From: Owenia fusiformis
Lineage: Eukaryota > Annelida > Polychaeta > Sabellida > Oweniidae
Length of the DNA stretch: 64,000 nt
NCBI GenBank assembly: GCA_903813345.2
Contig: CAIIXF020000007.1
Span: forward strand, 3,167,730 to 3,231,729
Direction: 5' to 3'
Numbering within the stretch: the first letter of the stretch is position 1; each line of letters begins with the position of its first letter. The notes beneath the pieces were generated by a model, which made no database searches, was not told the origin of the DNA, and was given only the letters and a program-made list of their open reading frames with translations. Shown here one piece after another: positions 1,030 through 39,149 of the stretch. The position numbers and the translations under genes were made by a program.

Positions 1030-1610
1030 AATACAGTTGCATTCCCATTTTATACTGGCTTGCGTCTTTGACTGTAATCCAGAACATCATATGGCTCAGG
1101 GCTCTGCTTGGCATTGGTTAAATTACTATTTATTTCTATTATAATTATTTATTTTTTAGTGAATTAAAGTATTAGTGTCAATGACCGTTTAGATAGTTAG
1201 TGCTATTTTGTCTGTTCCAGTGATCTGTATGTATTACCAGATTTTATTGAAAATAATACCCCTTGCATAATTATATCGCCATTAGCAATTATTTTAAAAG
1301 TAAAATAATTCAAAATAATGCCCTGGGTGGTATTCAGAGGGAAATTATGCATTTTTGATTAATAAGATCAAATGAGAGAATCTGGTAATCTGTTAAATGT
1401 TATTCACACAATTTAGCTAATTCATTATGAAAACATACTGTAATTGTAATTTAATTTATTGTGTACAGAAAATAAGTGATGAGGAACATTAAATATTGGA
1501 CAGTTTGTCGTCAATAGGTATATTTAGGTGTTTTTATGGATAAAACATGTACTTCTAAATTTTTATAAAGCATGTTAGTATTTTAATATTTATTTCTATT
1601 TCTACTCAAG
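1030..1610. other. Non-coding stretch, nothing recognised
   Basis: AT-rich sequence between the LINE fragment and the first visible exon of the anion exchanger. I see no exon, repeat or RNA gene in it. It is probably intron or 5' flank of the exchanger gene, whose start codon I could not find in the window. Confidence 0.5.
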
Positions 1611-13600: not shown

Positions 13601-16600
13601 TTATAAAATTGGCACAACCTATGATATATGTACTGTGCTTACCAAACCCCTCTTCTACATTTTTTACATTTACAGCAATTTTATTTAGGATTTCACATTT
13701 TATCAATTAATACAAAACTTGGAATCAGCATCTACTAACTTCATGTAGGACTTCATTGAAGGTACATAAACACCAGTCATAAGAGATAGCTTAGAGGTGT
13801 GAATGTCATTTTAACTGAAATAATCGTTTAGAGTTAAAAACCTGTTAAAAGCTTATATTGGAACTTTCCATTGAGTCTTAAGACTTAAAATTATTGAAAC
13901 AAAAGAAACCTAGTGGAAAGGTCCTGTGGTTTTCAACTCTGAAACATAAGGAAAGGTTTAGAACAGGAATGATAGAAAATGTCTAACTCTACTCTCTTAA
14001 TTGTAACCGTGTCATCAGAATGTTAACATTGACATGAGAAATAACCTATTACCATGGTGTAAGGGTACAAGTTGGTGTAATGAGTGAAATATCAAGTTTA
14101 CCTTCCTAAAGTTAACACATACTGCTGAACCACTGCCAAACGTGATCTCGTTTTAAGTTTTCACATTCATAGGCCAGGTAACACGGGAGTCAATAGCATT
14201 GGTGTAAGGGTACAAGTTGTATAATCAACTGTGGGAAATCTGGTGTAATGAGTGAAATATCAAGTTTACCTTTCTAAAGTTAACACATACATGTACTGCT
14301 AAACCAGCCAAAAGTGATCTCATTTTTAAGTTTTCACATTCATAGGTCATAACACGGGAGTCGATAGCATTTAGGATAATGTCACAAATACAGGTTTTTC
14401 TGCATGTTTTCACCTGGCATTATGTACAATGTAAGTTTACATGCAATAACAGTTCCTGATATTTTGTCGTAATTCTCCTACTTATTACTGTATAAATGTA
14501 TATATTTCTAGCCACGGGTGGTCAAGTTGGGCACATTTACACTGGCCGAGGTAGAATGGGTGAACTTTAAAACTTAACAAACAGAGTTGTAGGCTGTTTG
14601 GGGGTTGATCAGGGATGGAGATTATCTGTTGCTTTTAAATGCTCCAAGATGAGATGCTTTGTAGAATTTTCAGAACTTCTAGGATTTGTACCTTTGAATG
14701 AGTTTGAAAGTAATGGCAAGTGCTTTTATTAAGATTATTTAAGAAATTCCTGGTAGTAATTAGAACATAAAAAAGAATATGTATGGGTTCTGTGATCGGC
14801 GTGGTATTCATTTTTCATCAATATAAAGCAGCAATTCATACATTTAGATGTTTTTATTTTCAATACAAGAATATTTTGATTATTGGTTGTTTCATTCCTG
14901 GTCCATTTTTCATTCATGGGCTATGTTCATTTAATCAGACTTCATCTGTGAAAAAAATTATGTGAAGCAAATAAGTTTCTTTTTTGACAAATTCAAAAAC
15001 CTATTTGATATGTCAGCCATTTTGGGCAGTTTCTAGTCATGTAACTTCAAAACCAATTGTAAAAGCAGTTCTTTGAGACTGATTTCTCACGATGTACTGT
15101 CTCAAGAGGGAGGTCAAATGGTCTTGTAGGCAATTAAACAATATCAATCTCCCTTCTCAACCAACACTCATGCAGCCTACTACTGTTCTTAGCATGGAAA
15201 TGTAGTACCAAAGCTCCAATATATCTTTGCATTGCCATGTGTTTTGTGTTTGACATTGCCATGTTGAAATTTTGAGAGCATGGGCTTAGATTGGAAATAT
15301 GAGCCCTTTTATGCAAGATTTTGCAAGATCTATTCTTTTGCATTTAAATGCAAGTTAAATTCTTTTAATTATCAATAATGCGTAATTATGAATCTGTGAT
15401 ATAGATTGTATATAAAAGCCTGTTACTTTCAGCTTGCTCCTTCCAAATGGCTTCTTAAATGAATAAAAATTAAAAAAAATCTTAATTTGCCTAATTTTAC
15501 TGTGGTTATATTAATACAAGGAAATGTTATAATGTTACGGAGTAAATTAAAAATGATAAACTTGCGGTAGTGTGTAAGTTCTTTAATATTAGGTAAAAAT
15601 GCTTTGTTGGCTTTAGTTAAGGTCACTTTGTAGAGCTCCCACTTTATGGAAATCTTACACAAATGGGAAAAGATTCAAACGCAGATCAAAGATTTTAAGA
15701 ATAAAATGCATAAAATTCATAAAACTCGGGTAAAGGTGTATATGTTGTTTGGTGAGACATTTTGTTATGTATTAACTTGAAGTCTTTGTGTATTGAATCT
15801 TTTCATTTAGTATGTTGTCCTACATCATGAAGGTGTTGGGTTGAACTGTTTTACTCACATGAGACTTCATTTATTGGATTCCCTTTCTTGTAATTTATTT
15901 TGAGTTTTACGACACTTGTTCTTTCTATCTGTAACAGTTAATTGATTAATTTCTTTTGATTTTACATTTGTTTTTTCAGTTTCTTTCCTTTGTGACATAA
16001 ATTGTAATATTGAATGAGGACACTAACCAAGAACATTGTCAGAATTATAAATAAAATACAGGAGTTTCATTTGAATGGGCAAAACGTTTTAAAATTGAAA
16101 CTTTTTGAGAGAAGAACTTCTTATGAAACCCCTGAAATATAAATGTTGTATCGGGTAAAAACTACTCCAAAATACACTCTGTTTACAAAAACAGAAATAC
16201 TGTGATTAAATCATAACATCTTTTTTCTATGTTTTTGTAGGGGTCACACTCAAGAGGAGCTAGTCATAGATAACATGGCCCACAATGTGAAGAAGGCCTC
16301 GAGTATGGATAAAATTGAATCACTGGCGAATGACTCAACAGACGGAATTGCAGATGCCCTGATTTTAAACACACAGAGGGCACCACCGGTGCGAACGCTT
16401 AGCGAGGGGGACGGCACGCATGTTTCATTCTCTGTGCATACAGAGCCTGACAAAATTCGTGTAGATATTGACAATAATATGGTTAAGTGCTTACATAACT
16501 AACACATAGGTGTCATCTCAAAAGTTTCAAAATTCTACATGTAACTCAGTTTGTTAACTGCCAAACCACCCATCTACTCTTGTTAATGAAACTAGACTTG

Positions 16601-19600
16601 AAAGTGAGTGAGTTAGCGAGTTGGAGAATGTTCTTCATGAAAAATGATGAATTCTAAAAATATCAGAACATGAGGCAGTTACAAATCTGTTTTCAAATAT
16701 AAAATTGGACAAAAATTCCATTCTGCACCTGCCCTAGTCTTTTTTGGAAATGATATTAATAGCATAGATTAATGTATCTGCCATTGAACACCCACTCACT
16801 TAAATGAATTAGCTTTTTAAAGTGAAAAATTTCTAGAAGCAATGTTTTCCAAAAATCATGCCAATGATTTCCCTACGATCTTAAATTTATTTTCTGGAAA
16901 AGAGATTGAGATATCCAAACAAACATTGATGTTATTGAGCATAAAAAGGCAGAAATATCCATATTCATTAATATTTCTATCCCCCTTGTTCCTGTTACAA
17001 AATTGCTCATGTAGAATATATTGCAAAACATGAGATGACACCTAAAGGCTAACTTTTATCTTGGTCACTGAGAAAGCTTTGCTAAATTAAATGATTGACT
17101 TAATCAAAGGTCCATGATCACAATGATTTTGCTTAAACTGCAATTGTCCATTTTTAGATTTATAAACCATTATATCTATTACATTACACTGGTTGTAGCC
17201 AATTGAAGCTAAAGTATCCAAGCTAAAGCTTTACATTCTGCTTTGTTACTATATGATATGTGTATACAATAGACTAAATGCCAGAAGAAATTATTTTGAA
17301 TTTTGTCATTAAATATTCAAAATTTAGTTGAGGTGATATAATATTTGAAATCTACATGTAAAATTGATCTATAAATGGGGTTTTAAATATTGCTCATCAA
17401 CTTTGAAATTTTAGTTTTCTAAGTTGGGTAGATTCCCATAGAGTCCATGTTTTTGAACCATGAAAAGTGAAATACCTTTTTGTATTAGACAGATAACATT
17501 TTCTTTTATTGGAGATATTTTCAGTTGTATGATTGTCAAATTTATTTAATAAACCTATTGAATAAATATTGAAGTTTAGAGGAACTTTTTCCTATACCTG
17601 CCATGTCATTTGACCGAAATTAGCCACCTGGTGGTTAAATTGGTAATTAACTACTGGTACCTTGGTAGTTGCATTACAAATTGTATTAGCTCAATATTCG
17701 ATTTAGAAAAACTTGATAATGCTGTTTTGCTTTTTAGGAGGATGAAAAGTCTAAGGTGAAAAAAATTAAAAGTGATGAATCAGATATTCTTAAACGTATA
17801 CCTAAAGGAGCGGAAGCTACTACTGTGTTAGTAGGTACTGTAGACTTTTTGGAAAAACCCACCATGGCATTTGTGCGACTTTCTCAGGGACGGCAGTTGC
17901 GGAATTTGACGGAGGTTCCACTTCCTGTTCGGTTTATTTTCCTCCTGTTGGGGCCACCTACAGCTAATATGGATTACCACGAGATTGGTCGGTCTATTTC
18001 AACACTCATGTCAAATGAGGTAAGAAAATGTAACTTAACTTTCTGCAAGTATTCGTTCTACTGTTGTAGCAATGGATATCCTATCATTTGGTAGTATGCT
18101 CCCGTTTCACTCTACAATAAGTGAGGTAAAAGTTACTCATGATTCAATTTTCTCATTTTCCAGTTGGTGCAAATCAAGAATAATGAACTCAAAAAATAAA
18201 GAATGCATTTAGTAATCCTCCACAGATTTATTTTTTTACTATTTACTCCTTTTACCATGGGCTTTCAAGAGCTCTTGAAAGCCTATGCTTTAACATATTT
18301 ATTACATTGACACTCCAGTTCAGCCTTCCTTATTTCCTAAGGAAAACATTTTGTAGATAATCGTTGAAAAAGTCTGCATATGTAACTTTTGATTCTGACA
18401 ATTTTTTCCAGGTTTTCCATGAAACAGCGTACAAAGCTGAAGAGCGATCTGAACTTTTAAGTGCCATAAACGAGTTTTTAGATGACTCTATGGTCCTGCC
18501 ACCTGGTGACTGGGACAAGAAAACACTCATGCCAATTATGGACATGGCAAAGAAAAATCTAAGAAGAAGGAAAAAAGCAAAGAAAGCTGAAGAAAAAGCA
18601 GGTAAAGTAAAAGCTTATATTAAGTTTCAAAAAGGTTTACAGACTTTAATCAAAACAAATTACGAGATTCAGAATCATAGATTGTGAAATGTTGATCTTA
18701 ATCATTTCAAATCTTGTGTCAAATTTGTATTTTTCTTTTGGTTTTATACACTGTAAATGTTCGTAAAGTAGTGTTGCTTGGTTTAACGATCAAATAAAAA
18801 CCTATCATGTAATCATGCACCTTTCATTTTCCAGGATTAGTGATAGATAAGGGTGGCATCCCAGTAGACCCTCTCAAGAGAACAGGGAAGTTGTTTGGAG
18901 GTCTAGTGAATGATATAAAGAGACGTTATCCTCATTATTTAAGTGACATTAAAGATGGACTGAACTTCCAATGTTTTGCATCTTTTATCTTCATTTACTT
19001 TGCGTGTTTGGCACCTGCAATTACCTTTGGTGGTTTGCTTGGTAAGTTAATACGTTTAATAATCATTTTAGTTTTCTCTTTAAATGATTTATATTCATCC
19101 TGGTCTTCTTTCTGAGTATATGGAATCATTTGTTAACAAAGGGCACTATTAAAAAAATAAAAACTATAATTTTTCAATTTTTTATTCATTGTAACATTAG
19201 AATCAGAATTGAAATTGTCTGGCCTTCATGTATTATGTAGCAGTTACACAGGTGCAGTCCATATGAAATTCTATGAAAAATAGTTATTTTCCAAGCTCAT
19301 CTATCACTTAAAGCATGCATCTTACATACTTAGTCACTGCTTTGTGTCATTTTCCATGCATGATTCATTCATAAACTTCAAATCTGCCTGACATGAAATG
19401 TTCTGAAATTTGATTTGCAACCTGATTTTCTACAACCTTATCTTTTTAAAGTGCCACTGAGAGAGGCAATGAATATATTACTAATAAGAATTCTATATTT
19501 TTTATTTAGGTACATTTGGTGGGTCATAGTCTTGACTCAAGACCCCCCCCCACTTTCTACTTAAACAAGTAAAGTAGATGAGGGTGGAGGGGGGGTTAAG

Positions 19601-22600
19601 GGTCTTGAAGCAAGACGAGTGTGCCAAACTGAAGGAGATTATATGGAGGGTGGAGTATTATGAATTAATTATTATGATCATTTTAAATGTCTCAAAGGAA
19701 CATTCAGAAAGTGCAGAGGGTAGTATGTGACCACAAACCCCCCCAAACCATATTCATGTACTAATCATTGCATTATAATCCCAGAAACTCCAGACTGTTC
19801 TACCTTTAGATATATACAAACTGGCTATTGCCAGACAGACCTGGAAAAGGTAAAAGCTTCATATTGGAGTATAAAGGACTTTTCTTCGAGGAAAAGTTTG
19901 AGCAGTTAGAGTTGCCCTTTTTTGGCAATACATGTATAATTGATATACTTAAACAAAAAGTTATTCATTTGTGATAAATTAAAGAAATACACATAGATCT
20001 TTGAGCACGCTTTGGACTAACTACTGAAGCATAGATAGATATTTGCAAAAGTAAAAACTCTCAAACACTGAATATTTTCACTCTTTTTACTAACATTTTT
20101 CTAGCTTTGCGAAGTACTCCACTTGAAAATGAAAATGTGCAAAATGTGCTGAAAAGAGGGAAAAGTTGGGGAAAATGAGAAAATCAATTCAAAATCAATT
20201 CAAAAATCATCTATAGGACGGCATATACAGGATATGGGAGACAATCCTTTATATATGTTTTTCATGGTTTTGAAAAATATAATTTTCACCCTGTGCAGGT
20301 AATACTCAGATACCAGTGGCCCAATATCTTTTGTATTTTATACATGTGAGTACAAGTTCTACTCAAAAGCCAGTTTTGGAAATGGCTGTTGATTTCAAAA
20401 TGGCCACCAATTTTAAGTATTTTAGTTCAAACATATAAAACTGTAATTTTAATGTATTAAATGCAAATGCTTTAACTGGAAAAGTAGCATAGCGATGTTG
20501 TTGAAATTTTATTTGGGAATGCTAAGAAGCATTTACGCTTTCTCATGACAGTTTATCTAGTAGGCGGCAATTTTAATAAATGGCAGCCATTTTTATGCGT
20601 CATTCTATGTGTTTACTATAACTTGAAAAGAAGTGGAGCAGTTTTGCTAATATTCAGATGTGAAATAGAAGCACATTACACTGCCTAGTGACAGTTTGCT
20701 AATTGGTGGCCATTTCCAAAAATTGCAGCCATTTTTATGGCTCTCCGATAGGATTTGCTACACCTCAGAGTTGCTGTTACCTAACATTAGTCTTTTGTTG
20801 AACGCCTTTCCCCTTTAAGGTGTCAAATCCAGGTTTCTTTATGCTTGTGGCTTCCCAATGCATTACAGGAGAAAAGATGGACAATCTGATGGGTGTCACT
20901 GAGACAATGCTGGCCAGTGCTCTGGGGGGTCTAGTCTTTGCTGCATTTTCTGGCCAACCTTTAGTAGTTATAGGAGCAACTGGTCCCACTATTGTTTTTG
21001 AGGTTGCCATATATAAAGTAAGCCATGTAACAGGTGGTATATACCGTATGCTTGCGCAACAAGGGGGCAGGGGCTTTGCATTGTATGTATGTGTGACTGC
21101 TATCAAACTTAACATTCTTAACCTCTTCAGCTCTACCTATAATTAGAAAATGAGCCATACCACACTGTTTATTCTCATATCTCTTTGTGTGTATGTTAAG
21201 TATGAATGAATGCTTTTGCGCTACTAACTAAATATATACCCATTACTTATAAATTATTAAAACTGTGGTATTTGTAACCACCCTCTCGATCACATGTTTG
21301 ATAATAATACCCCCCCCCCCACTACATCCTTATCTATATCCCTTTAACTGATTAAATCTTCTTTATATTAAGGCCTCTAAGATGTTAGAATGACGTGTTA
21401 TTTAATAAAAGCCATATGAGCTAGGGCACAGGAATAGGGGTCTTATCACAGATTATTTCAATATTTTTGATGTTTGATGTTTTGTATCTTAAAAAGGACA
21501 AAGAGACCTTTCAAATGAGCTGTGGCTTATGTCTTTAACAATATTTTCTTGCAGATATAGACCAAAAAGACGGATTTGAATTTAGCAAATTTTCCCTCTT
21601 ACTCTTGGGCACATTTTTGGCTCTGAAGCACACTTGTAATTTTTGTGATAAGACCAGTTTTCCTGTGTTGAGATTCATGTATTGTATAACATGCTGTATA
21701 TTATGTGTGATCAACAATTAATATTCTCACATTCTTGTTTCTTTTCAGGGTGATTGTATCGTGTAATAACATAATTATATTGTAGTAACTACGTCTGTAC
21801 AGATTGTTTGATATTTGTTGGAAGAATTGATTTTTGATCAGAACCAGGAGTAGAAATTTGCCTCTCAAATTCAGAACTTTCATATTCATGTTTTTATCAA
21901 TAATTTGCTGTACAGTAGAACTTATCTAATCTGAACACCAAACATGATTAGCATTTGTTCACATTTCAATATGTGAGTCAAAGGGTGATAGCAAAATTTG
22001 GACCAAGAAAAATTATTCATATTGAAAGGTGTTAAGATTAGAGAGTTGTTCAGATATATGGGTTCTACTGTTAATGAAAATACCTTTAAATGTAAATACT
22101 GAGCTGATCAAGAAACAGTCACAAACTTCTTGATATCATGGACTATCAGGCCTTTCAATATATAGTATGTACAATGTACATGGCATACTTTAAGATTATG
22201 GAAGTATTTGGTACAGCCATATAAATGATTATATATTATTGCATGTACATCTTAGAGGTGATGTTCTGAATTCTGCAAAGTTCCACTTCTGGTGAACCAT
22301 TCTATTCAATTCTATTCCAGCCTTTGAATTAATTAACCATTGCAGATGTTCATTGGAATTATATGTGCTTACTTATTTTTAACTTTTTAATTCATTTTGT
22401 TTGGTTTAATCATCTCTCACCTCATTTACATACTAGTAATCAAGAATGTGCATGGTTTTGGGGAAAAGATAAACCGTGCAGTCAGATCTTATATCATTAT
22501 CTGTTTTATAGGAAAAATGAAAACATGATTCAAAAATATATCTGAAATTACACTGAATTGTTATTTTGAGATATGACTGCATTTTTAAGCGAGCTTGAAA

Positions 22601-25600
22601 ACATCACTTTCCAATTCTGTATTAAATCCTCATTAGAATCATTTTTGAACAACTACTATGTTTTCCACTATGCATGCACATTTTGAATGCTTATGATATT
22701 TCCCTCATCATTCTTGACTGGTGGGTGGAGCAATTGTACTTTTAGTGGAGGAGCTGAAATTGTAATATGTCTGTAGATATAGAACAATCTATTTTATTCC
22801 ATAATAACATATTTTCCCTGGGAAATAAACTGGGAATAAAATCAGCCAAAACCAGCCAAAATCCTGTATCAGATCCCGTATTGGATCCCGTATCAGCCAA
22901 AATTCCATATCAGATCCCATATCAGAACTATCAGAAAATTTCATGAGACTTAATATTGTGTTATTATGGCATTGTATGATCCATATTAGTATTATAAATA
23001 ATTTCTATTTTAAAAGTTGAAAATGTCGCTTGACAAGTTTAAGAAAAACATTATGGAATAAATAGGTTATTGATGGTTATGATGGAATATGAACTTCTCC
23101 TCAAGGAAATATGATATTGACCAAGGAAAATATCATATTGACCGAGGGTGACAGCCCTTCAATTAAATAACCTCTATATAATCCATCCCTCCCATTAAAT
23201 AACCTCTATATATGTCATCCCTCCCATTAAATAACCTCTATATCTCCAGGCATCTTATTCTCCTCTTTCATTGAGTGTATCTTCACATTTCATTTATGTT
23301 GGCTCCTTTTAAATTTGACTACCTACAGTTTGAAGTGTGCCTTTAGTAACCATTATTTCGTTCTCTTTGGAATTCAGTTTGTTTTGGTTTCAAGCACTGC
23401 AGCTTCAATTTTGTTGTAACCAATTCAGCCTTGTTCAAACCATACTGAATCCTAAACATGTTATTCAGTATTCAGATTGGTTTGATACATATAAACATTT
23501 TTTCATTTTTCATTTAACCTAATGACAAAGTTTCTGTTCAGACGTGAAATGAAAAAGGAACCAAATCATATCGAAAAGTAATCAAAATAAAGGTTTTGAT
23601 AAAATGAAAACAGTTTAATATATACTGAATCAGGTGAACACATATTGAACTTGCAAGCAATTTTTCTGACTAGAGCCATGGTATCAAACACATACACTTT
23701 GGACGTATCCAATGTATACTCATGCAAAATTATATTTCATGAGAATGTACACGTCTCTTTGGATTCAATCCATTCTAGGTGAAATCACCAATAACTGGAT
23801 GGGTGCAGGAGAGATGCTGATTGGCTCAGCAGGCTGTGGAATTATTTTTTCATTGTTGAGTGGCCAACCACTGGTCATTCTGGGATCAACAGGGCCAATT
23901 CTGGTATTTGAAGAGGGCTTATACAGTGTAAGATTTTACTGTATTATACCTCTACTATATGTAGATTCAGCGTAGATGTCTATTATAATTTTATTTTATT
24001 TATTAGACTCAAGATTGAAAATCTATTTTTGTCTTTTTCTTTAGTATTTTTGTTTTCTTAAATAACTTGAAGCATCTTTTTCACAAAAACAGCTTTTTCC
24101 TGGATTCTTTATCTACAATCCTTTGGCCCTCTGTGTTATGCTAAAGGTGAAAGGGAGAATTTTCAATGTTTTATGCAGATGTTACAATCAGAACAATATT
24201 ATACCATACATAAGTCTCAGTTGTCTCTAGATTTTGAAGGTTAAAGGCCAAATCTAGGTCATATTTCATCTGGAGTTTTTAATTGAAATTTATCCTATCT
24301 GAGACTAGTTATCTTTGTGTTTCTCTACATAAATTTACATATGCTGGCTTTAAAGTGTGTCTTTTTATCCCACCGAACAAAGTATGAATAAACATGGCCT
24401 GAGTATGGGTGCTTCAGTTAATAATGGCCATCTTTTTTCATTGAAAATATGTAATCATCAGTTAACAGATTTCATTTTAGAATTTATGTGCTAATGCCTT
24501 ACACATATTAGTGTAGAACTTTGCTCAAGAATGAATTTAGGTCGATGCATTTTAGACAAAGAACCTGCAAAGACATTTCTAACATTATGTCATGTCACAT
24601 CATTGAATATGTAGATTTTGCCAAAAAGTGACAATTATATACTGCCTGGTTATTTTTATTTGAAATGTTTAAAACAACAAGTAAATTGTTAAAATATGTT
24701 TTGTTCGGTGGGATTTGCTACTACATGCTGTTTTTCAAGTTTCTCCACCAGAAATTCCAAGTATAGTCATTTTTCACAATAAAGATTAAATGAATCAGTA
24801 ATCAACAATTTTAAGCAATCCAATTTTTGACTATTGCACATGTGCATGTTGACCATCACATGTCATCAAAAAAATGTTTCTTTAATGAACAAAAAGGACT
24901 ATGGACATAATATGTCATCAAAAAACTGTTTCTTTAATGAACAAAAATGACTATGGACATAATATTAACAAAACGAAAATAACATTTAATGGTAGCATCA
25001 TTTGCTTTCTTTATTCTTGCATGTATGTGTACTCTATTGTACTTGTTGCATAGTGACAATACAATGTTTATGTCTATTTTTGCAAATCCATTGCATGCTT
25101 TTCAGAATTTCAGGGTTAACCATGGACCTTCTTAATGGCATGATCATTCCCTGAGCTAACAATAATAGCTTTACAACCAAACCATTTTGAGACTTAAGCC
25201 CCATTAACTTTCCCTACTATACTAATTTTGTGGCGTGAATTCATATTCTTAACATTATATAGGATTTCATGGTCCAAGTCAACAGGTGAATACAGTGCTC
25301 ACACTAACAACTCCATAACGACATGATGCACACAGAGGAAAATACTTTTCACCACTTTCCAACATAGACTTAACTGTAAAATCAAACCATTTTTACCTGC
25401 ATGGCTTCCTTGTTACCTGATACCAATAACATTGCTCCAAATGCTTCGCTGTGTGAGTGCTCGCATGCATGTACTAAATGCCATTGTATGTGCTGAAAAA
25501 TGTATGGGTACACAAACAGAAGAATTTATAAGTTAAGAATTCCTGAGTCTTTGTTCTCTATCATAATTTCCATGGTTACAACAGTTGATTTAGGAATTTC

Positions 25601-28600
25601 TATTGCTTAAAGAATGTTCTGGTAATGTACCCCAGGGTCTGCTAGGGGTATGATTGTGATGACCTTTGCCCCCTTGTTGCATTCAAGTGTTTAATATGTT
25701 AAACATCTAAAATGACTACACCATTGGATGGAAGTCAAAATCAAGAAGCTGTGATATATTGTTATTGCCACCTGTGTTGGTGTTCATTGTCTGCATTTGG
25801 CCTTTGTAACAAATTGTGACATTTGTCATGCTGAATAGTTAATCCCTATTTAAACATGTTTTCGATTTCCATCCAATGGTTTGGTCAACTCTAGGTTTGG
25901 TATCTGCATGCATATATACTAATGCTACTCAAATTGATGCTGTATGTTAAAGGTATTAGAAAAAAATGTAATTTAACATTGTAGAAAGCAAACATAGAAA
26001 TGTATTAGACAACAACATTATAACTTGCTCATAAAAGATTTTCGTAACACTACAAAAAAAGGTTGTGGCATCATTTTCTATTATTGTGTTCCTTCTCTAC
26101 ATTGATATCTCAAGTCATCGCTATATTGACATTGCTTTACTACCAAATTTCTCTTACAGTTTTGCAAAAGTATCCACATAGAGTTTATGCCTATGAGGGT
26201 GTGGATTGGGGCCTGGGTGGCACTTATGTCTATCATAGTTGTGGCCCTTGAGGGGAGCTTTGTCATCCGCTACGTCACTAGATTCACAGAGGAGATCTTT
26301 GCCCTTCTCATCTCATTCATATTTATATATGAAGTCTTCAAAAAACTTGCAACTGTAAGTATTAACAATCTTTGCATTCCTACAACATAAAACTTGACAA
26401 TCAAGACATAGAATTAAGTTAAACAGTGTCAGCTGTAATTGCCTCATACATGTACATTATGGAAAATCTTGAATCATGGATTTAAAAAATTTATTTTGAA
26501 TAGATTTGAGGTATTTCAGTGAAAATAATCATTCAATTAAAAAGTAAGGAAACAGAAAATTTAATGTGATGTTGTAGCAAAAACAAATTGCAACAAAACT
26601 TTTAATTTGACTTAATGTGCCTTTCACTTAAAACAACTCTATATGGTTGTATTTAGATATTCATCAAACACCCCTTAGCAGCGCACTACCCACCACCGCC
26701 AATCTTCCCAGAGTTAAACTCTACATTGGCAAATAACCTCACGATGGATAACTACACATTAGATGGCAATGCCTCTTTCCCTAACCCCCGTGAGGAATAT
26801 GACTATACCACGGGCCAGCCCAATACAGCATTGCTATCTGTCATATTGACATTTGGGACATTTTTTATCGCCTATTTTCTAAAGCAGTTCAGGAACAGCA
26901 AGTTTTTAGGGCGAAATGTGAGTAATTGATACATTGATTTCAATTTCAACTTGAATGATAAAGTAATAAAAAGGGATTTACAAAGTCATAAGTATGCAAT
27001 AGGCTTCAGGGATATAAAGTTTTTTAAGATGTATGTTATTTGTGTTTCTGTATATATATTTCTTTTATTGACTCAATGATCATGTCATATAAATGACATA
27101 TCAGTCACGTAACAGTGAACAAAATTTTAAACTACAACTACAAATCAGTTTCACATGTTACAATACAAGTATAAACAATAACAAAATATCAGTGTGGTGT
27201 ACCCACAATAAATATGTTATCCATGTTTTTGTTTCAGGCCAGAAGAGCAGTTGGAGATTTCGGAATCCCTATTGCAATTATCATAATGGTGCTAGTAGAC
27301 TATTCTATACAAGACACATATACTCAGGTATTTTTTAAGAGTTCATATCGTTTCATATATTATTTTAAAAATTCCAAAAATCTACATGGTTTTCTATCTC
27401 TCAAATTAAATATACATGAAATGGAGCCAAAAATAATTTCTCTTTCTTGAAATTTTAGAAGCTAAACGTTCCTGATGGTTTGAGTCCTACAGACCCCAAG
27501 AAAAGGGGGTGGTTTATAAATCCCATGGGGATCAACCAACCATTCCAAGTGTGGCAAATATTTGCTGCCATCATACCTGCACTGCTTATTTTTATACTGA
27601 TGTTCATGGAGATTCAAATTACCTCGTAAGTTAAAATAATATATTATAGTTTTTTATGGTGCTATCTTTGCTGTTTTTATCTTAGGTTCTCATGATACTT
27701 TCAGAAAGAGTTTGCGTGATCTCTAGAAAGACCATGACATTAAATGTAGAAGTTTTGAGTCATTGTTCATATTCTCTATTTTGAGAAAATGAGAAAAAAG
27801 TCTGTTAGCTTCACCTGAACATTGTTTTATTTTGTGAAATTAGTATTTTTGTATAAAAATAATCTAGCAAAATTGATTGATAAAAGCTAAATTTGTATAC
27901 ATAGTCAATGTCATCATAATCCTTTTCTTTACATTTGTTGATATATTTCAAACATCAAAAAAATTATCACTTTTTTACATTAAATAAAAAAGGTATTCAA
28001 AAATTAGTTCACCCTGTATTGAAGAGCAAATACCCATTTGAATTATTTTATTTCATTCTTACAGAGTCATAGTCAACAAGAAAGAGCGTAAACTAAGGAA
28101 GGGCTCGGGGTACCACTTAGATCTACTGCTTATAGGGTTCTTCTCCTTGGGCCTTGGTCTGTTTGGTATGCCCCTAGTGTGTTCTGCTGCTGTCCGTACA
28201 GTAGCCCACGTCTCAAGCCTCACCATTATGAGCAAAACACATGCCCCTGGTGAGCAGGCTAAAATAGTTGAGGTTAAGGAACAACGGGTCACAAATGTTG
28301 CTGTACATCTTATGATAGGTATGGATTTGTTTTCGATTAAGGGAATCTGAAATAGATTGTAATAGCCAAATCTCCTGTTATAATCTTTGCTATAATCTAG
28401 GTTTTAATTATTCAAAATACTTGGTCACAGACTATGCTGAACAGTTATGATGCCTAATGGCCTCAATTCTTACAAATTAACGTAGAACTTGTTCAATTGA
28501 AATACCCTTTGTACCCAGAAAGTCTTCAACTTGGGAGTTCTTCCACTATCAGAGGTCCATTTTATAATAACTTGACGGATAACGGGACTTTGAACTATTC

Positions 28601-29718
28601 CACGATGCAGATTTTACTGTATTATGTACATGTATTCATAAAATCATAAAATAAATATCAAATATTTAACACATGCATTGACTGTTTCAGGGGTGTCAGT
28701 ATTGATGGGCCCAGTGCTCCGCCAGGTGCCTATTGCAGTGTTGTTTGGTGTATTCATGTATATGGGGGTAGCATCAATGTCAGGCATACAGCTGTTAAAC
28801 AGAGTAGAACTGATGTTCATGCCAGTCAAGCACCATCCTGATGTGGGATATGTTAGGAGGGTAAGCTCTTAGAAATATATCAAATAAGTTCCTCATGTAA
28901 TGTCACATGCTGAAATATACCCTTTGGGGTCACTGGGTATTGCAATTATCATTTTCATAATATCCCAAACTGATTTAACTGAGGAACATAATGAACAGAC
29001 TAGAGTTTTCATATATCTTATATTTAATATGATTGTGCTCGTAGGTGAGGTCAGTGAAGATGCATCTTTACACATGTGTGCAGTTACTAAGTTTGGCTGC
29101 ACTGTGGGTGGTGAAGTCTACAGAGGCTGCTCTTGCCTTTCCGTTTGTGCTCATATTAACCGTGCCATTGAGACTTAAACTTCTTAAGTACATATTTACA
29201 GAGAAGGAGCTACATGAGGTATGTCTTGTGTCAAACCGTTAAGTGTGTGTCCCTTCATGTACTCATGCAATATGAGACACCCTGTGGAGATAAGAAATGT
29301 ATTTTTAATGTTTTTGATGATCTTTATTAAACATAAGAATTAATGCTGTAAACTGTACTCAAATGAGATGATTACTCAACTGGGATTAAATTTTAATCCT
29401 TCCAGATTAAATATGAATACTGAATCTGACTTAGTTGTGTTACAATTATTGTATCAGGATCTATACTTAAGTGACATATCCACTTCTCCCAGGGCTAATT
29501 CTCCATAAATTTTGCTTGATTTCTCAGTGTCTGGTAATTTTGTCTGCAGTGTTTGGAAATGGAAAACTTGGTGAAGAGCATATCTCTTCAGGTATTAATA
29601 TTATTATATGATCTCTATTCAATGATATATTCTTTTTTAGTTGGACAAAGAAGAAGAGAGTGAAGATGAAGACGAAGATGAACCAGATTTCTACCAGCAA
29701 GCTCACTTCCCAATGTAA
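1611..29718 (+). CDS. SLC4A: SLC4-family anion exchanger (AE2/AE3-like), 5' incomplete
   Basis: Plasma-membrane Cl-/HCO3- exchanger controlling pH and chloride. Exons read: 1611-1719, 3941-3995, 4457-4680, 5263-5402, 5847-6027, 7089-7224, 7435-7506, 16241-16481, 17738-18019, 18412-18601, 18835-19041, one of 20869-21017 or 23779-23927, 26160-26354, 26657-26917, 27238-27327, 27459-27625, 28065-28318, 28691-28860, 29045-29218, 29641-29718. Optional in-frame exons: 2219-2251, 10020-10049, 29550-29591. Phases agree throughout and give 1124 residues without the start (AE2 has about 1240). The cytoplasmic half contains [12 protein letters not shown] and [12 protein letters not shown], as in AE2, and [10 protein letters not shown]. 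The membrane half has PHYLSD, an extracellular loop with NST, NLT and NAS glycosylation sites, a Glu in FMEIQITS (AE1 E681) and an Arg in SAAVRTVAH (AE1 R730). The acidic tail resembles the carbonic-anhydrase-binding tail of AEs. These point to AE rather than NBC. The acceptor of 5263-5402 is weak; the start codon is not visible. Confidence 0.93.
2219..2251 (+). CDS. SLC4A: Candidate 33-nt microexon of the anion exchanger
   Basis: Acceptor aatttcag and donor gtacac bound 33 nt in phase 1-1, the same phase as the junction between exons 1611-1719 and 3941-3995. It would add eleven residues reading [10 protein letters not shown] plus a split glycine in the serine- and acid-rich N-terminal cytoplasmic region. 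Because skipping it leaves the frame intact, it would be an optional cassette. Similarity cannot confirm so short an exon; the support is splice sites, phase and composition only. Confidence 0.5.
2330..2720 (-). mobile_element. LINE ORF 3'-end fragment (C-terminal Cys-rich region)
   Basis: The minus strand reads like the extreme C-terminus of a non-LTR retrotransposon polyprotein. It has a [18 protein letters not shown] cysteine/histidine motif followed by [15 protein letters not shown] and [11 protein letters not shown], the usual ending of CR1/L2/Jockey-type ORF2. At least one in-frame stop lies before the motif, so it is dead. It is in the first visible intron of the exchanger. It is not continuous with the reverse transcriptase at 1-1029, which is a different stretch of a LINE. 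Confidence 0.75.
3322..3428. mobile_element. Small TIR element (MITE-like)
   Basis: Bounded by caaggtggtcaaaaaatg on the left and ctttgaccaccctgtaca on the right, an imperfect inverted pair about 100 bp apart, in an exchanger intron. The ends resemble mariner-type termini. The boundaries are approximate. Confidence 0.4.
6048..6790 (+). mobile_element. Helentron-like non-autonomous repeat, copy 1 (most complete)
   Basis: The left end is TATCCCACCGAAC followed by a hairpin (CGAAC gaa GTTCG). The right end is GTTTGGTGGGATTTGCTA followed by a perfect hairpin (ACTCC gt GGAGT). The ATCCCACCGAAC end is repeated inverted at the right. Between them lie four or five diverged 110-130 bp monomers, each with 'ttggttcaaa', 'atgcc' and an aaaatggccgccattttt palindrome. 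Inverted ends, subterminal hairpins and internal tandem monomers without clear target duplication are known from Helentron-associated elements; that assignment is inference. Three further copies are in this gene (9081-9580, 20380-20775, 24364-24740). Confidence 0.65.
7655..8722. mobile_element. Tc1/mariner-type MITE with internally deleted transposase
   Basis: A 1068-bp element flanked by TA on both sides. Terminal inverted repeats of roughly 110 bp start CAGGGTGGGCCAAAAAAAAG and match with few differences at the right end. Inside, on the minus strand around 7770-7975, a transposase N-terminal helix-turn-helix-like stretch ([19 protein letters not shown]) is followed almost at once, in another frame, by [11 protein letters not shown], a typical transposase C-terminus. 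The catalytic middle is missing, so it is a non-autonomous deletion derivative. It lies in the exchanger intron between 7506 and 10020. Confidence 0.85.
9081..9580 (+). mobile_element. Helentron-like non-autonomous repeat, copy 2
   Basis: Starts TATCCCAATGAACAAAG and ends TTGTTCATTGGGATTTGCT followed by cctccatgggttgctc. It has the same end structure as copy 1 at 6048, but the inner monomers are different and mostly lost. Confidence 0.55.
10020..10049 (+). CDS. SLC4A: Candidate 30-nt microexon of the anion exchanger
   Basis: A strong pyrimidine-rich acceptor (gttttttag) and a gtacat donor bound 30 nt in phase 2-2. This fits in frame between exons 7435-7506 and 16241-16481 and adds EMYKRWSRR-type basic residues to the cytoplasmic domain. 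Skipping it keeps the frame. It is the only exon-like segment I see in the 8.7-kb intron. Support is limited to splice signals, phase and basic composition. Confidence 0.5.
12040..12440 (+). repeat. Dispersed repeat shared with 62575-62935
   Basis: From 'gagagaatcagagatagcga' through 'ttctataagaatggttacca' to 'gtcaccctctatag', this roughly 400-bp block matches 62575-62935 with scattered substitutions. One copy is in the exchanger intron and the other in intron 1 of the third PLAC8 gene. I do not recognise the family; no coding capacity is evident. Confidence 0.75.
12534..12710. mobile_element. Possible mariner terminal sequence
   Basis: 'tatacgagggttgtcctgga' resembles a mariner left terminus (TA, then ACGAGGGTTGTCC). 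I did not find the matching right end, so this may be a solitary end or chance. Confidence 0.3.
13272..13366. mobile_element. Tiny TIR element (about 95 bp)
   Basis: 'tacaggatgtctataaagtt' faces 'gagactttttggacacccta' in inverted orientation, mariner-like in wording (CAGGGTGTCC...AAAGTCTC). It lies in the exchanger intron and has no coding capacity. Confidence 0.4.
14058..14370 (+). repeat. Direct tandem duplication, about 150 bp x 2
   Basis: The block 'ggtgtaatgagtgaaatatc' ... 'ttttcacattcataggccag' ... 'aacacgggagtcaatagcat' occurs twice in succession with small indels, inside the exchanger intron. No function is apparent. Confidence 0.7.
18256..18287. mobile_element. 32-bp palindromic insertion, copy 1
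   Basis: A 32-bp near-perfect palindrome with arms CATGGGCTTTCAAGAG / CTCTTGAAAGCCTATG. It is flanked by cttttac (18249-18255) and ctttaac (18288-18294), a 7-bp target duplication with one mismatch. It lies in the exchanger intron between exons 17738-18019 and 18412-18601. Related insertions are at 52082 and 57006. Confidence 0.7.
20380..20775 (+). mobile_element. Helentron-like non-autonomous repeat, copy 3 (degenerate)
   Basis: The right end 'aggatttgctacacctcaga' 'gttgctg' and internal monomers with aaaatggccaccaatttt-type palindromes match copy 1 at 6048. The left boundary is unclear. It ends just upstream of alternative exon A. Confidence 0.5.
20869..21017 (+). CDS. SLC4A: Alternative exon A (TM2-TM3) of the anion exchanger
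   Basis: This exon encodes 50 residues, starting with a glycine codon split by the upstream phase-1 donor at 19041, and ends in phase 0. It begins [10 protein letters not shown], contains [13 protein letters not shown] and ends VFEVAIYK. It corresponds to human AE1 from about residue 428 to the end of TM3, whose half-helix faces TM10 around the substrate site. The acceptor is ttacag and the donor gtaagc. The next constitutive exon (26160) continues FCKSIH, the expected start of the next segment. A copy of a Helentron-like repeat ends about 100 bp upstream. Exon B at 23779 has the same length, phase and fold position, so only one of them should be used per transcript. Confidence 0.9.
22855..22930 (+). 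repeat. Short tandem repeat
   Basis: Units around 'cagatcccgtat' / 'cagccaaaat' alternate four or five times over about 75 bp in the intron between alternative exons A and B. Confidence 0.5.
23155..23246 (+). repeat. 33-bp tandem repeat, three units
   Basis: The unit 'attaaataacctctatata' plus 'tcatccctccc' is repeated three times in the intron between alternative exons A and B. Confidence 0.7.
23779..23927 (+). CDS. SLC4A: Alternative exon B (TM2-TM3) of the anion exchanger
   Basis: Second version of the same 149-nt exon, with the same phases (in 1, out 0). It begins [14 protein letters not shown], contains [13 protein letters not shown] and ends VFEEGLYS. Compared residue by residue with exon A, 24 of 50 positions are identical, including SGQPLV and the TGP of TM3. 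The first extracellular loop and TM2 differ most. The acceptor is cattctag and the donor gtaaga. Using exons A and B together would add 298 nt and shift the frame. The reading frame is open and the membrane-protein signature intact, so this is not a decayed duplicate. It sits 2.76 kb downstream of exon A and 2.2 kb upstream of the next shared exon. Confidence 0.9.
24364..24740 (+). mobile_element. Helentron-like non-autonomous repeat, copy 4
   Basis: Left end TTATCCCACCGAACAAAG; right end TTGTTCGGTGGGATTTGCTA followed by ctacatgctg. It has the same termini as copy 1 at 6048 and a shorter interior with an aatggccatctttttt-type block. It lies in the intron after alternative exon B. Confidence 0.6.
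24860..24964 (+). repeat. Tandem duplication, 54 bp x 2
   Basis: 'catgtcatcaaaaaa' ... 'gtttctttaatgaacaaaaa' ... 'gactatggacataatat' occurs twice in a row with one or two differences, in an exchanger intron. Confidence 0.75.
29550..29591 (+). CDS. SLC4A: Candidate 42-nt optional C-terminal exon of the anion exchanger
   Basis: Acceptor tgtctgcag and donor gtatta flank 14 codons, phase 0-0, reading [14 protein letters not shown]. It lies between TEKELHE (end of exon 29045-29218) and [17 protein letters not shown] (last exon). In vertebrate AEs the ELQCLDADDA carbonic-anhydrase-binding stretch is continuous here, so this exon may separate the membrane domain from the acidic motif when included. 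With or without it the frame continues to the stop at 29716-29718. Confidence 0.6.
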
Positions 29719-30481
29719 CCCATGCGGTGAAACATCTGCCACAATTTGCATTGTTACTTGTGCAATTTAATGTCTGGAACATTTCTCAAAGTAACACATT
29801 TGATTTCACATCTGGAACATTTGCTTACGTATGGAATTTCACATCTAGAGCCTTGCCAAAGTTACACATGGAATTTCACATCTAGAACATTTGCCAAAGT
29901 TACATATGGAGTTTCACATCTTGAACATTTGCAAAGTTACACCTGGAATTTCACATCTAGAGCTTTGCCAAAGTTACACATGGAATTTCACATCTAGAGC
30001 TTTGCCAAAGTTACACATGGAATTTCACGTCTAGAACATTTGCCAAAGTTACATATGGAATTTCACATCTGGAACATTTGCTTACGTTACACACGGAAAT
30101 TCACATCTAGAACATTTGCTTACGTTACACATGGAATTTCACATCTAGAACATTTGCCAAAGTTACACATGGAATTTCACATCTAGAACATTTGCCAAAG
30201 TTACACATGGAATTTCATATCTAGAACATTTGCCAAAGTTACACATGGAATTTAACATCTGGGACATTTCTCAATGTAATTCCTGCAATGGAACATCTGC
30301 CACATTCCCATTGTTACTTGTGAAATTTTAGATGCAGAAATGTCTTGACTTCATTTGATTTTTCTGAATCTTCCTCTTATTTCTCTCTATGCCTCCAAGT
30401 CTCTTTGATATAATGGTTGATATTAAAAGTAAAATAAAATGATAGATATTTCAAAAGAAAGTAAGTTTAATGGCTAATAAA
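29719..30481 (+). repeat. 37-bp minisatellite and likely 3' UTR of the exchanger
   Basis: Starting about 55 bp after the exchanger stop, about 13 units of 37 bp (core 'ttacacatggaatttcacat' 'ctagaacatttgccaaag') run from about 29774 to 30290. The array is bracketed by related direct repeats ('aacatctgccaca' ... 'cattgttacttgtg') at 29730-29766 and 30292-30326. AATAAA signals follow at 30433-30438 and 30476-30481, so the array is probably transcribed in the 3' UTR. Regular units without spacers rule out a CRISPR. Confidence 0.8.
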
Positions 30482-33884: not shown

Positions 33885-35600
33885 CTATGCAGTGCTCATA
33901 TCAGTCATTTCTTGCTGCTTCTGTACCGGTACATAATATACAATTTTAGGTCGGTTAGCATTTTTTCCACATACCGCCCTTCCACTAAATACACTCCCCA
34001 AAATGCACATGATGAAATGGAGAACGCCACACAGCATCAAGATAGCGTGTTGAACCATCCGATATGGGTAGTTTTGCCGTACGAAATGCCAGTGATGTGT
34101 TGTGGTGCTCATGGGATTAGTCGTAAAGTCGTGTGATATTGTTATTGGAGTGTTACTCGTGGACTCTATCGTGTTGTTTGTAACACTGCCAACTGTCGTG
34201 ACGCCATCGTCGTCATACACTTGCATCACTCTTGTATCGCGAGTTATACCAATAGCAGCAGTAGTTATTAAAGTCATTGCAAATAAAATAATAGCCAGAA
34301 TGTTGAGCACGAGATATGCAACTATAGTACAATTTGTTTTCTTTCGAGCTGCACTTTGACCAACAATTCCAGTCACACAAAAGAACAAGCCGCTAAATAT
34401 TCCAGCGCCAGTTGTCCAAGTCCGAGTCACGAGCACAGTTATCCCAAGTATCATAGCTAATGCACCAAGGCAAATCTGCAATAGTGAAAGCTTGAACACT
34501 TTCGTTTCTGCGAATCCAGGACGTGATTTGTCTAAACCTTCTGGCGGGGGAATTATGGTCCCCTCATTTATTGGAGGCGGGTTGTTCATATAAATTCCAT
34601 GTCCGTCACCTTGAAATAAAGAAATCATATGAGCAAAGTCACAACCTCCGAACGCAGTGCTCCGAGCATCACCCACTGCACTCTTTCTAATGAATCAACA
34701 GAGTAGATGGTGTCTCACTAGAGCACAACGTTTGGAAGATTATTTATGAATTCGGAGGTTGAATTACTCGACGTCTTCCTTCGTATTTGGGACCACATTA
34801 ATAATGATATTGCTGGTTTTAGACATATGGATGGTATGTTATGATCTCCATTCATTCATCTGTTCATTGCCACATATTATGGTTAAAACTTTTATCCACA
34901 AATGATCTCCCACTTGACTTAACCTCACATTTATCCATATACGAGTAGCTACTCGACTTAACCTCACATTTCCCACATAGCTACTCGACTCTAACCTCAC
35001 AAAAACACAGCATTTTAACTTCACATACCCCAAAAAGCAACTCGACTGAAACTTTACACATCCCACACACCCGACGGGACTTCAACCTCACATATCCCAC
35101 ATAGCTCCTCGATTTTAACCTCACATATATTACATACCCACAACTTCAACCTCACATATCCCACATAGCTCCTCGATTTTAACCTCACATATATTACATA
35201 CCCACAACTTCAACCTCACATATCCCACATAGCTCCTCGATTTTAACCTCACATATATTACATACCCACAACTTCAACCTCACATATCCCACATAGCTCC
35301 TCGATTTAACCTCACATATATTACATACTTATGATTTACGCATGATTCAACCTCACAAATATCACATACCCACAACTTCAACCTCACATATCCCACATAT
35401 GCCACATAACTTCTCGATTTAAATCTCACATATCTGACGTTGATAGCTAAATATTTGTATTCAACTCTACCTGTCGCTCGTACTGGAGTCCCTTGTACGG
35501 TCACGTGCGTAGGGGATCCAGGTGGCAAATGGGGCACAGTGTCATTCTCTCCATTCTCTACAAGGTATTCTTTATCAAGGTGTTTGTATTTTGATCCCAT
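33885..35600 (-). CDS. Four-transmembrane protein (MS4A/CD20-like superfamily), two exons
   Basis: Exon 1 is 35600-35471 (start MGSKYKHLDKEYLVENGEND) and ends in a phase-1 donor (gtagag). Exon 2 is 34609-33885 after an acceptor tttatttcaag. The product is 284 residues. A proline-rich cytoplasmic N-terminus (PPPINEGTIIPPPEG) is followed by four hydrophobic helices: LSLLQICLGALAMILGITVL, GAGIFSGLFFCVTGIVGQ, IVAYLVLNILAIILFAMTLI and MVQHAILMLCGVLHFIMCIL. A polar Thr/Ser-rich loop with an NNT site lies between helices 3 and 4, and is presumably extracellular. The tail QKQQEMTDMSTA is cytoplasmic. Layout and the 'G.GIFSG.FF...G' wording fit the MS4A/CD20-like four-TM proteins; family membership is inferred from topology and not proven. 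Its transcription converges with the exchanger. The intron contains a 64-bp minisatellite. Confidence 0.8.
34865..35440. repeat. 64-bp minisatellite in the four-TM gene intron
   Basis: Three nearly identical 64-bp units occupy about 35087-35290 (core 'cctcacatatcccacatagc' 'tcctcgattttaacc'). They are flanked by diverged units with the same 'aacctcacat' and 'cccacat' words from about 34865 to 35440. It fills most of the 861-bp intron. Confidence 0.8.
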
Positions 35601-35669: not shown

Positions 35670-36520
35670 CACCCTATGCAGACAGAGCCTGTGGGAAATA
35701 TTGGGTGCGGAGCAAATGAGCGGAGGGTGCGGAGCTAACGGTCATTTTTGAATTTAAATTTGGGATATTTCTGAAACTAAGCCGTTTTGGGACTTCAAAT
35801 ATACCAAGATATGTGTATTTGACACCAAATATCAATACAATTCTGAAAATAGTAGCGCAATTCATTTTATAGCGACGCAGTGTGCCTTAAACCTTTCCCA
35901 GACCTATATATTTTGAAATTATCCTTTTAATACTGAGTCCCCAGCATTCATAAAAAATGGTGTTCAAGGTACACTATCTATACAAATTATTTTTGCATCT
36001 TGGAAGCCAGGCAGTATCTGTGTGATTTTATAAAAATTCGGAAATGTTCTTCAGATATGAGCCCCCTCTAAATATTGGGTGCGGAAGAGCTCCATAAACG
36101 TACCTCCGCACCCAATATTTAGAGGGGGCTCATATCTGAAGAACATTTCCGAATTTTTATAAAATCACACAGATACTGTCTGGCTTCCAAGATGCAAAAA
36201 TAATTTGCATGGGTAGTGTATCTTGAACACCATTTTTTATGAATGCTGGGGACGCAGTATTAAAAGGATATTCTCAAAATATATAGGTCTTTGAAATGTT
36301 TAAGGCATAATGCGTCGCTATAAAATAAATTGCACTACTATTTTCACAATCTTATTGATATTTGGTGTCAAATACACATATCTTGGTATATTTGAAGTCC
36401 CAAAACGGCTTAGTTTCAGAAATATCCCAATTTTAAATTCAAAAATGACCGTTAGCTCCGCACCCTCCGCTCATTTGCGCCGCACCCAATATTTCCCACA
36501 GGCTCTGTCTGCATAGGGTG
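35670..36520. mobile_element. 851-bp foldback element with 5-bp target duplication
   Basis: The left and right halves are inverted copies of each other: arms of about 416 bp with few mismatches around a spacer of about 20 bp near 36095. The termini are CACCCTATGCAGACAGAGCC. Target duplications agtat lie at 35665-35669 and 36521-36525. Each arm carries the word 'aaatattgggtgcgga' near its outer and its inner end. There is no coding capacity. It lies just upstream of the four-TM gene start (35600). A partial copy of one end is at 44646-44702. The superfamily is not identified. Confidence 0.85.
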
Positions 36521-38712: not shown

Positions 38713-39149
38713 ACCTCCTACCTCATACCCCGACCCACGTATGTTGGACATGATACAGTCTTTGAAGGGTTCAATTTTAAAGATCTTGGTTTATTAAATC
38801 TTAGTTTATGATGAATTATAGATGCATTTGTAACGACCATTGATAGCAAGTTGCTACTACACCCCAGCTGGGTTCGATTCCCACTCGGGGCATCGAATTT
38901 AGCACACTCTCGTTCAATTTCTTTATCTGGCTTGTTGGACCTATGCTCGCGGTCGTTAGTTATTTATTCCCCTGGGGCGCCCTCGGGTCATTACACATTA
39001 AAATGCATCCATATGCCTTTATTTATGGATCTGTCATCTGTCTAGACATAAAATAAAGCCGGAATTGTAGAAATGTAATAATTTGAGCTATTTTGAGATT
39101 TAATAATCTTTAAAATTGAACCCTTCAATGACTGTATCATGTTCCACGT
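38713..39149. mobile_element. MITE with tRNA-like interior, copy 2 (right end truncated)
   Basis: The same left end (cctcctacctcatacc) as the neighbour at 38231. The B-box is canonical, GGTTCGATTCC (38871-38881), with an A-box-like tagcaagttgc about 28 bp upstream. The right inverted repeat breaks off after 'tcaatgactgtatcatg'. The 1469-bp tandem duplication begins inside this copy. Confidence 0.65.

What the first reader, a model, noticed from the sequence alone, without database searches (positions are those of the whole stretch)
20869..23927. Mutually exclusive exons swap the TM2-TM3 half of the ion-binding site of an SLC4 exchanger
Seen: two exons of exactly 149 nt with the same entry and exit phases, both with intact splice sites and open frames, encode alternative versions of the same 50 residues (24 identical). 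Using both gives a frameshift; using either fits the flanking exons. Known: in AE1, TM3 and TM10 half-helices meet at the anion site. Inference: alternative splicing switches the transport site and first extracellular loop between two ancient variants. I do not know of this arrangement in vertebrate SLC4 genes.
Basis: partly seen in the sequence, partly recalled or inferred. Interest (0 to 1): 0.88.

Follow-up and report, generated by a model that had tools for sequence, protein, structure and literature searches.

The report
Swappable exons in an anion exchanger
An animal gene for a chloride/bicarbonate exchanger carries two old, alternative versions of one exon, so a cell can most likely build the transporter with either of two versions of a segment next to its anion-binding site; this kind of exon swap is known in other ion transporters, but I found no report of it in this family.

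Summary
Exons A (20869-21017) and B (23779-23927) are each 149 nt, have GT-AG sites and identical phases, and give alternative versions of one 50-residue segment (24/50 identical). The frame is open with either exon. Using both, or neither, gives a premature stop. The gene is an AE1/2/3-type SLC4 exchanger: AE2 is the top PDB hit, and the central Glu681 and Arg730 are conserved. Both copies look selected and old (dN 0.48, dS 2.1). The interpretation needs narrowing. The TM3 residues T465-G466-P467 (AE1 numbering) are the same in both variants and most other site residues lie in constant exons, so the exon does not simply switch the binding site. The clearest charged differences are at the extracellular gate: A keeps K430 but loses E473, and B does the reverse. 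In bovine AE1 these positions form two of three salt bridges that stabilise the inward-facing state. A long RNA duplex that would loop out B is a weak lead with mixed controls. There are no transcripts and no relatives, so use of both exons is inferred. I rate it a new variant of a known kind: mutually exclusive exons in a transporter, as in NKCC2.

The parts
16241..29718 (+). 3' part of an SLC4 anion exchanger gene: 12 exons plus the A/B pair, to the stop codon (end of the cytoplasmic domain, whole transmembrane domain, C-terminus)
   Evidence: Pfam PF00955, PF07565
18835..19041 (+). exon before the pair (TM1 region), ends one base into a codon
20869..21017 (+). exon A: TM1 end-TM2-TM3 variant, Lys430, Ala464-Thr-Gly-Pro, Val473 (AE1 numbering)
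23779..23927 (+). exon B: TM1 end-TM2-TM3 variant, Ile430, Ser464-Thr-Gly-Pro, Glu473 (AE1 numbering)
26160..26354 (+). exon after the pair (I528, F532, E535, K539 conserved)
27459..27625 (+). exon with TM8 central Glu (AE1 E681)
28065..28318 (+). exon with TM10 Ala-Ala-Val-Arg (AE1 T727-R730)
29045..29218 (+). exon with TM13 Lys (AE1 K851)
29641..29718 (+). last coding exon and stop codon
21038..21089 (+). candidate selector: intron stretch starting 21 nt after the exon A donor, complementary to 25645-25700 (14-nt perfect core 21056-21069)
   Evidence: weak, no conservation test
25645..25700 (+). candidate docking site in the intron after exon B (core 25667-25680), 460 nt before exon 26160; pairing would loop out exon B
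   Evidence: weak

Best explanation
The gene encodes a Cl-/HCO3- exchanger of the AE1/2/3 type. An old tandem duplication of one exon gave it two mutually exclusive exons, A and B, for the outer end of TM1, TM2 and TM3. Shown here: two intact, frame-compatible, diverged copies with the mark of purifying selection, and premature stops if both or neither are used. Inferred: both are spliced in vivo, and transcripts with two or no copies are removed by nonsense-mediated decay. Inferred with less confidence: both isoforms are anion exchangers with the same core anion contacts but a different extracellular gate. A keeps the K430-E535 pair and lacks E473-K851; B keeps E473-K851 and lacks K430-E535. 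The inward-facing state would then be held by different salt bridges, and a different site-S2 residue (K851 or E535) would be left free, which would change anion affinity, turnover, pH response or stilbene sensitivity between cell types. Choice of exon may use pairing of 21038-21089 with 25645-25700, which would loop out B.
For: Exon anatomy and frames. Homology of each exon to the same profile region. Low dN against saturated dS (0.476 and 2.07 by NG86), and 15 of 24 identical residues with different codons. AE type: AE2 696 bits, AE3 693, AE1 634 against 480 for sodium bicarbonate cotransporter 3 (9ovr), with E681 and R730 conserved. Gate residues: 430 K/I and 473 V/E; partners E535, K539 and K851 conserved outside the pair; K430 and E473 both present in the AE1 (4yzf), 8d9n, AE2 and AE3 chains as aligned. 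Bovine AE1 inward-facing salt bridges D447-K557, K448-E553 and E491-R869 (PMC9751308, passages) map to human 429-539, 430-535 and 473-851 by the 18-residue offset between chains 8d9n and 4yzf (I take 8d9n as bovine AE1 from the matching residue numbers). RNA pair: -51.0 kcal/mol; its 14-nt helix is stronger than the best of each of 400 shuffled intron sets.
Against: No transcript, no species name and no related genome could be examined, so exclusive use and conservation are untested. The functional reading rests on mapping to AE1 structures; no isoform model was made. 26 of 50 positions differ, so singling out 430 and 473 is a choice. The RNA pair is not secure: 38 of 222 stretch sets from elsewhere in the same window reach its helix energy; only 10 of 60 planned controls were completed for the long duplex (0 of 10 reach -49.6, best -47.0); and the same docking region also pairs with a G-rich stretch near 19582 in the intron before A (-39.3), which would not favour either exon.
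Confidence: 0.78

Rival explanations
1. Only one exon is used; the other is a silent or dying copy that still looks intact.
For: No transcripts were available; exon A has the weaker acceptor (0.7 against 5.9 for B) and is further from AE1 (23 against 27 of 50).
Against: At saturated dS a neutral copy would not be expected to keep dN at 0.48 and hold QPL, TGP and the helix pattern; only 20 of 363 AG-149-GT frames are open. Both donors are in the range of the other exons.
Confidence: 0.1
2. The swap changes substrate or ion coupling itself: B carries the G-S-T-G-P motif of the Na+-dependent SLC4 members, A carries G-A-T-G-P, so one isoform is a plain exchanger and the other transports a different ion set.
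For: GSTGP is named as the TM3 motif of Na+-dependent members in PMC13263692 (passage); position 464 differs between the exons.
Against: The TM8 Asp is described there as critical for Na+ binding; TM8 here is the AE-type Glu and TM10 has the AE-type Arg, both outside the pair. Position 464 contacts the anion through its backbone and F464C keeps almost 100% activity in human AE1 (PMC8191340, passage). Both variants share T465-G466-P467.
Confidence: 0.12
3. The pair changes folding, trafficking, surface recognition or partner binding through the first outer loop and TM2 rather than transport kinetics.
For: Differences run throughout the segment, not only at the gate.
Against: TM3 and two gate residues also differ; I know of no partner for this protein.
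Confidence: 0.25
4. Assembly or haplotype artefact joining two alleles or paralogues.
For: Genome identity and assembly quality are unknown.
Against: Exon copies are only 83/149 identical in DNA, and none of the 10 other exons tested is duplicated in the window.
Confidence: 0.02

Closest known systems
NKCC2 (SLC12A1) alternative exon 4 variants
   Same: Alternative exons encode a transmembrane segment near the ion path of a transporter; the isoforms differ in ion affinity (stated in PMC6873903, passage; mutually exclusive SLC12A1 exons are named in PMC9741552, passage).
   Different: Different family and fold (recalled); the NKCC2 exons are tested, these are not.
SLC25A3 (mitochondrial phosphate carrier) mutually exclusive exons
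   Same: Mutually exclusive exons in a solute carrier, within a folded domain (PMC5740500, passages).
   Different: Unrelated carrier (recalled); a switch of expression is described there.
Vertebrate AE1, AE2, AE3 (SLC4A1-3)
   Same: Same transporter type, central Glu and Arg, gate partners.
   Different: A 2015 review lists SLC4 variation as alternative N-termini, optional cassettes and alternative C-termini, with optional cassettes in Na+-coupled members and AE4 only and one in the transmembrane domain (NBCe2); 'mutually exclusive' occurs 0 times in its main text (PMC4664831, 12 of 18 passages seen). Mouse AE3 (Slc4a3) has a NOVA-controlled cryptic exon that leads to decay, not an exchange of segments (PMC3552424 and PMC8652244, passages).
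Docking/selector exon clusters (Dscam, 14-3-3zeta, Mhc, MRP1)
   Same: Candidate pairing has the topology with the docking site in the intron downstream of the cluster (described in PMC6071210, passage).
   Different: Only one selector candidate found, no conservation, no experiment.

Membership tests
SLC4 anion exchanger (AE1/2/3 type) | HCO3- transporter membrane domain and Band 3 cytoplasmic domain | tested here: met
   PF00955 5.1e-76 and 1.1e-78 for the two 184-residue stretches with A or B; PF07565 1.5e-103 for a partial join of cytoplasmic-domain exons
SLC4 anion exchanger (AE1/2/3 type) | TM8 Glu (E681) and TM10 Arg (R730) in place of the Asp/no-Arg pattern of Na+-coupled members | tested here: met
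   rule from PMC13263692 passages
SLC4 anion exchanger (AE1/2/3 type) | Na+-independent Cl-/HCO3- exchange | not testable with these tools
   needs transport assay
Mutually exclusive exons | Neighbouring homologous exons, equal length, same phases | tested here: met
Mutually exclusive exons | Double inclusion and double skipping not productive | tested here: met
   premature stops in both cases
Mutually exclusive exons | Exactly one exon in mature transcripts | not testable with these tools
   no RNA data
Docking/selector control | Complementary intron pair that loops out one exon | tested here: inconclusive
   0 of 400 shuffled sets but 38 of 222 native sets reach it; 0 of 10 native for the long duplex
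Docking/selector control | Second selector competing for the same docking site, and conservation | tested here: inconclusive
   next-best partner of the docking region is a G-rich stretch near 19582 in the intron before A (-29.8, -39.3), not after exon B; no relatives to test conservation

The most novel reading that the evidence does not exclude
One AE gene switches its extracellular gate by splicing: isoforms A and B each keep a different one of two salt bridges that lock the inward-facing state, on an otherwise identical anion site, so splicing sets the inward/outward balance of the elevator. The switch is old, set by a long-range RNA duplex, and present in many invertebrate phyla.
Probability: 0.2. 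Interest if true: 0.75.

Novelty: new variant of a known kind. Interest (0 to 1): 0.55.

Why it matters
If both exons are used, nature has made a paired experiment on the moving TM2-TM3 element of the SLC4 elevator, with the rest of the protein held constant. It would allow a direct test of which gate contacts set anion affinity and turnover, and it would add a bicarbonate exchanger to the ion transporters whose transport segment is chosen by splicing.

Tried and rejected
Whole-genome search: none held for this window. Relatives: one viral-contig scan gave two weak loci, L001 and L002 (39 query residues, 45% identity, E 2e-4); the ORFs of L001 read to me like phage genes and none like an SLC4 (no family search done on them), and L002 was not opened; I treat both as chance. 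A prokaryote-genome scan gave 86 pattern matches and no relative. So whether other animals have the pair is untested.

Literature: ten searches of the held library; one search was for AE structures and for NKCC2, the other eight for exclusive exons or splice variants of SLC4 or anion exchangers and for catalogues of such exons. No title or abstract opening in their listings is about mutually exclusive exons of an SLC4 gene; several listings were capped (20 of 30, 10 of 11, 20 of 57, 12 of 34). In one search none of the 20 shown has either term in title or abstract. Both papers were then opened at their passages: they concern a cryptic exon of Slc4a3 that leads to decay; the supplementary exon table of PMC3552424 was not seen. 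The Drosophila gene CG8177 with 'mutually exclusive' gave one paper, whose passage on it concerns expression only. Subscription papers and genome annotations were not searchable, so annotated or published cases may exist.

A guessed small exon 29550-29591 in the first gene model was dropped for the exon at 29641-29718, which carries the acidic C-terminus. The idea that B makes a Na+-coupled isoform was set aside because TM8 and TM10 are of AE type. Steric exclusion of splicing is unlikely: the exons lie 2.76 kb apart. TGCATG motifs were counted (1, 3 and 6 in introns 1-3, 24 on the + strand of the window) and not interpreted. In one search the within-intron pairings had no working control, so I do not use them. 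In one search two of four dN/dS methods failed. No structure prediction was run, since a spliced protein is not a contiguous translation of the window.
Full report
What is there. The window carries, on the + strand, an SLC4 anion exchanger gene. From 16241 to the stop codon at 29718, 12 exons plus either A or B join in one open frame of 819 codons with a single stop at the end. Earlier exons of the cytoplasmic domain lie at about 4.4-7.2 kb; they were not all joined. A partial join of cytoplasmic-domain exons matches Band_3_cyto at 1.5e-103, and the two 184-residue stretches around the pair match HCO3_cotransp at 5.1e-76 (A) and 1.1e-78 (B).

The pair. Exons 20869-21017 (A) and 23779-23927 (B) are 149 nt each, have GT-AG borders, take the same split glycine codon from the upstream exon and end on a codon boundary. 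They share 24 of 50 residues and 83 of 149 bases. With both, a TGA lies 40 nt into B; with neither, a TGA lies 90 nt into the next exon; the stops are 107 and 103 nt before the end of their exons, so both products are expected targets of nonsense-mediated decay (the decay is inference).

Chance and relics. Of 363 AG-149-GT frames on both strands, 20 are open including these two; the pair scores 130 by BLOSUM62 against each other and the next best open frame scores -11 against either. Alone, each exon hits the Pfam profile in the same region. NG86 gives dN 0.476 and dS 2.07; ML gives dN 0.434 with dS 16.3, at saturation; two other methods failed. Of 24 identical residues 15 use different codons. 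I read this as an old duplication with selection on both copies. A-B identity (24/50) is close to the identity of each to human AE1 (23 and 27 of 50), while the flanking stretches are 44/66 and 34/64 identical to AE1, so the duplication may be as old as the split from vertebrates if rates were equal. That is inference from one sequence pair. A profile scan finds two copies only, and none of the 10 other exons tested is duplicated in the window.

Type of transporter. Best PDB matches of the B isoform are AE2 (696 bits), AE3 (693) and AE1 (634), well ahead of sodium bicarbonate cotransporter 3 (480). The TM8 central Glu (AE1 E681) and TM10 Arg (R730) are conserved, as are P419, F423, I528, F532, E535, K539, V729 and K851; T727-T728 of AE1 are Ala-Ala here. 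So the constant part is that of an AE1/2/3-type exchanger.

What the swap changes. The exon equals human AE1 428-477. Helix limits are partly recalled; the passages seen place 429-430 in TM1, 452 and 455 in TM2, and 464-466 and 473 in TM3. The TM3 contacts listed for AE1 are S465 and G466, with F464 added for the outer site S2 (PMC13263692, Table 2, passage). Both variants have Thr-Gly-Pro at 465-467. At 464 A has Ala and B has Ser; human F464C keeps almost 100% activity because the contact is through the backbone (PMC8191340, passage). In bovine AE1 the inward-facing state is stabilised by D447-K557, K448-E553 and E491-R869 (PMC9751308, passages), which are 429-539, 430-535 and 473-851 in human numbers (offset). 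Position 429 is Glu in both variants. At 430 A has Lys and B has Ile. At 473 A has Val and B has Glu. All partner residues lie outside the pair and are conserved, and K430 and E473 are both present in the AE1, 8d9n (taken as bovine AE1), AE2 and AE3 chains as aligned. So each isoform lacks a different one of two gate salt bridges whose residues those four chains all have on the TM1 and TM3 side. E535 and K851, the partners, also belong to the outer anion site S2 (PMC8191340, passage). My prediction is a change in the inward/outward balance, anion affinity and stilbene response, not a change of substrate. This is inference; 26 of 50 positions differ.

How exclusivity may be enforced. The frame alone makes any other choice unproductive. 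In addition, the intron stretch starting 21 nt after the A donor (21038-21089) pairs with 25645-25700, 460 nt before exon 26160, at -51.0 kcal/mol with a perfect 14-nt core. Pairing would loop out B and bring the A donor towards the next exon, the topology described for clusters with the docking site in the downstream intron (PMC6071210, passage). Controls are mixed: 0 of 400 dinucleotide-shuffled sets reach the helix energy, but 38 of 222 native sets elsewhere in the window do (300 drawn, 78 near or over the locus dropped). For the long duplex, 60 native controls were planned and 10 finished in time; 0 of 10 reach -49.6, the best being -47.0. Other intron pairs here reach -40.0 (19552 with 21288) and -39.3 (19582 with the docking region itself), and no selector after exon B was found. 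I keep it as a lead.

What is known. Mutually exclusive exons in ion transporters are a known kind: NKCC2, SLC25A3, and ion transport genes as a class (PMC9741552, abstract and passages). For SLC4, a 2015 review lists alternative N-termini, optional cassettes and alternative C-termini, with one cassette in the membrane domain, and does not use the words 'mutually exclusive' (PMC4664831, passages). Mouse AE3 has a cryptic exon under NOVA control that leads to decay. Eight of my ten literature searches bear on exclusive exons or SLC4 splicing, and no title or abstract opening in their listings, some of them capped, is about an SLC4 case. Genome annotations of invertebrates were not searchable, so the pair may be annotated somewhere without being described.

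Verdict. A real, well-formed, old exon pair in an AE-type gene; very likely mutually exclusive; function inferred. It is a new variant of a known kind, of solid but not extreme interest.

Noticed in passing
window 1-1086 (-): Reverse transcriptase ORF, cut by the window edge (RVT_1 1.5e-31); it looks to me like a non-LTR element.
   Followed up: partly
window 42058-43386 (+): Three Kunitz/BPTI domain ORFs in a row.
   Followed up: partly
window 49331-49777 (+): ORF matching the PhoPQ-related family (PF10142, 1.1e-18) in an animal genome.
   Followed up: partly
window 38721-41582: ORFs of identical listed translation recur about 1.47 kb apart (39560-39802 and 41029-41271; 39901-40113 and 41370-41582), suggesting a recent direct duplication or assembly duplicate; an ungapped 1600-nt comparison at that offset from 39401 gives 1076 matches, so the copy does not cover all of it in register.
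   Followed up: partly
window 35677-35886 (-) and 36304-36513 (+): Two very similar ORFs on opposite strands: an inverted repeat.
   Followed up: no
window 29773-30269: 38-bp tandem array, 13 copies, starting 55 nt after the stop codon of the exchanger gene.
   Followed up: no
window 24367-24714 and 6052: Inverted repeat with ends ATCCCACCGAAC in the intron after exon B, with a similar sequence at 6052: looks like a small transposon.
   Followed up: no
window 33888-34694 (-): ORF with weak CD20 and tetraspanin similarity, below the Pfam cut-offs.
   Followed up: no
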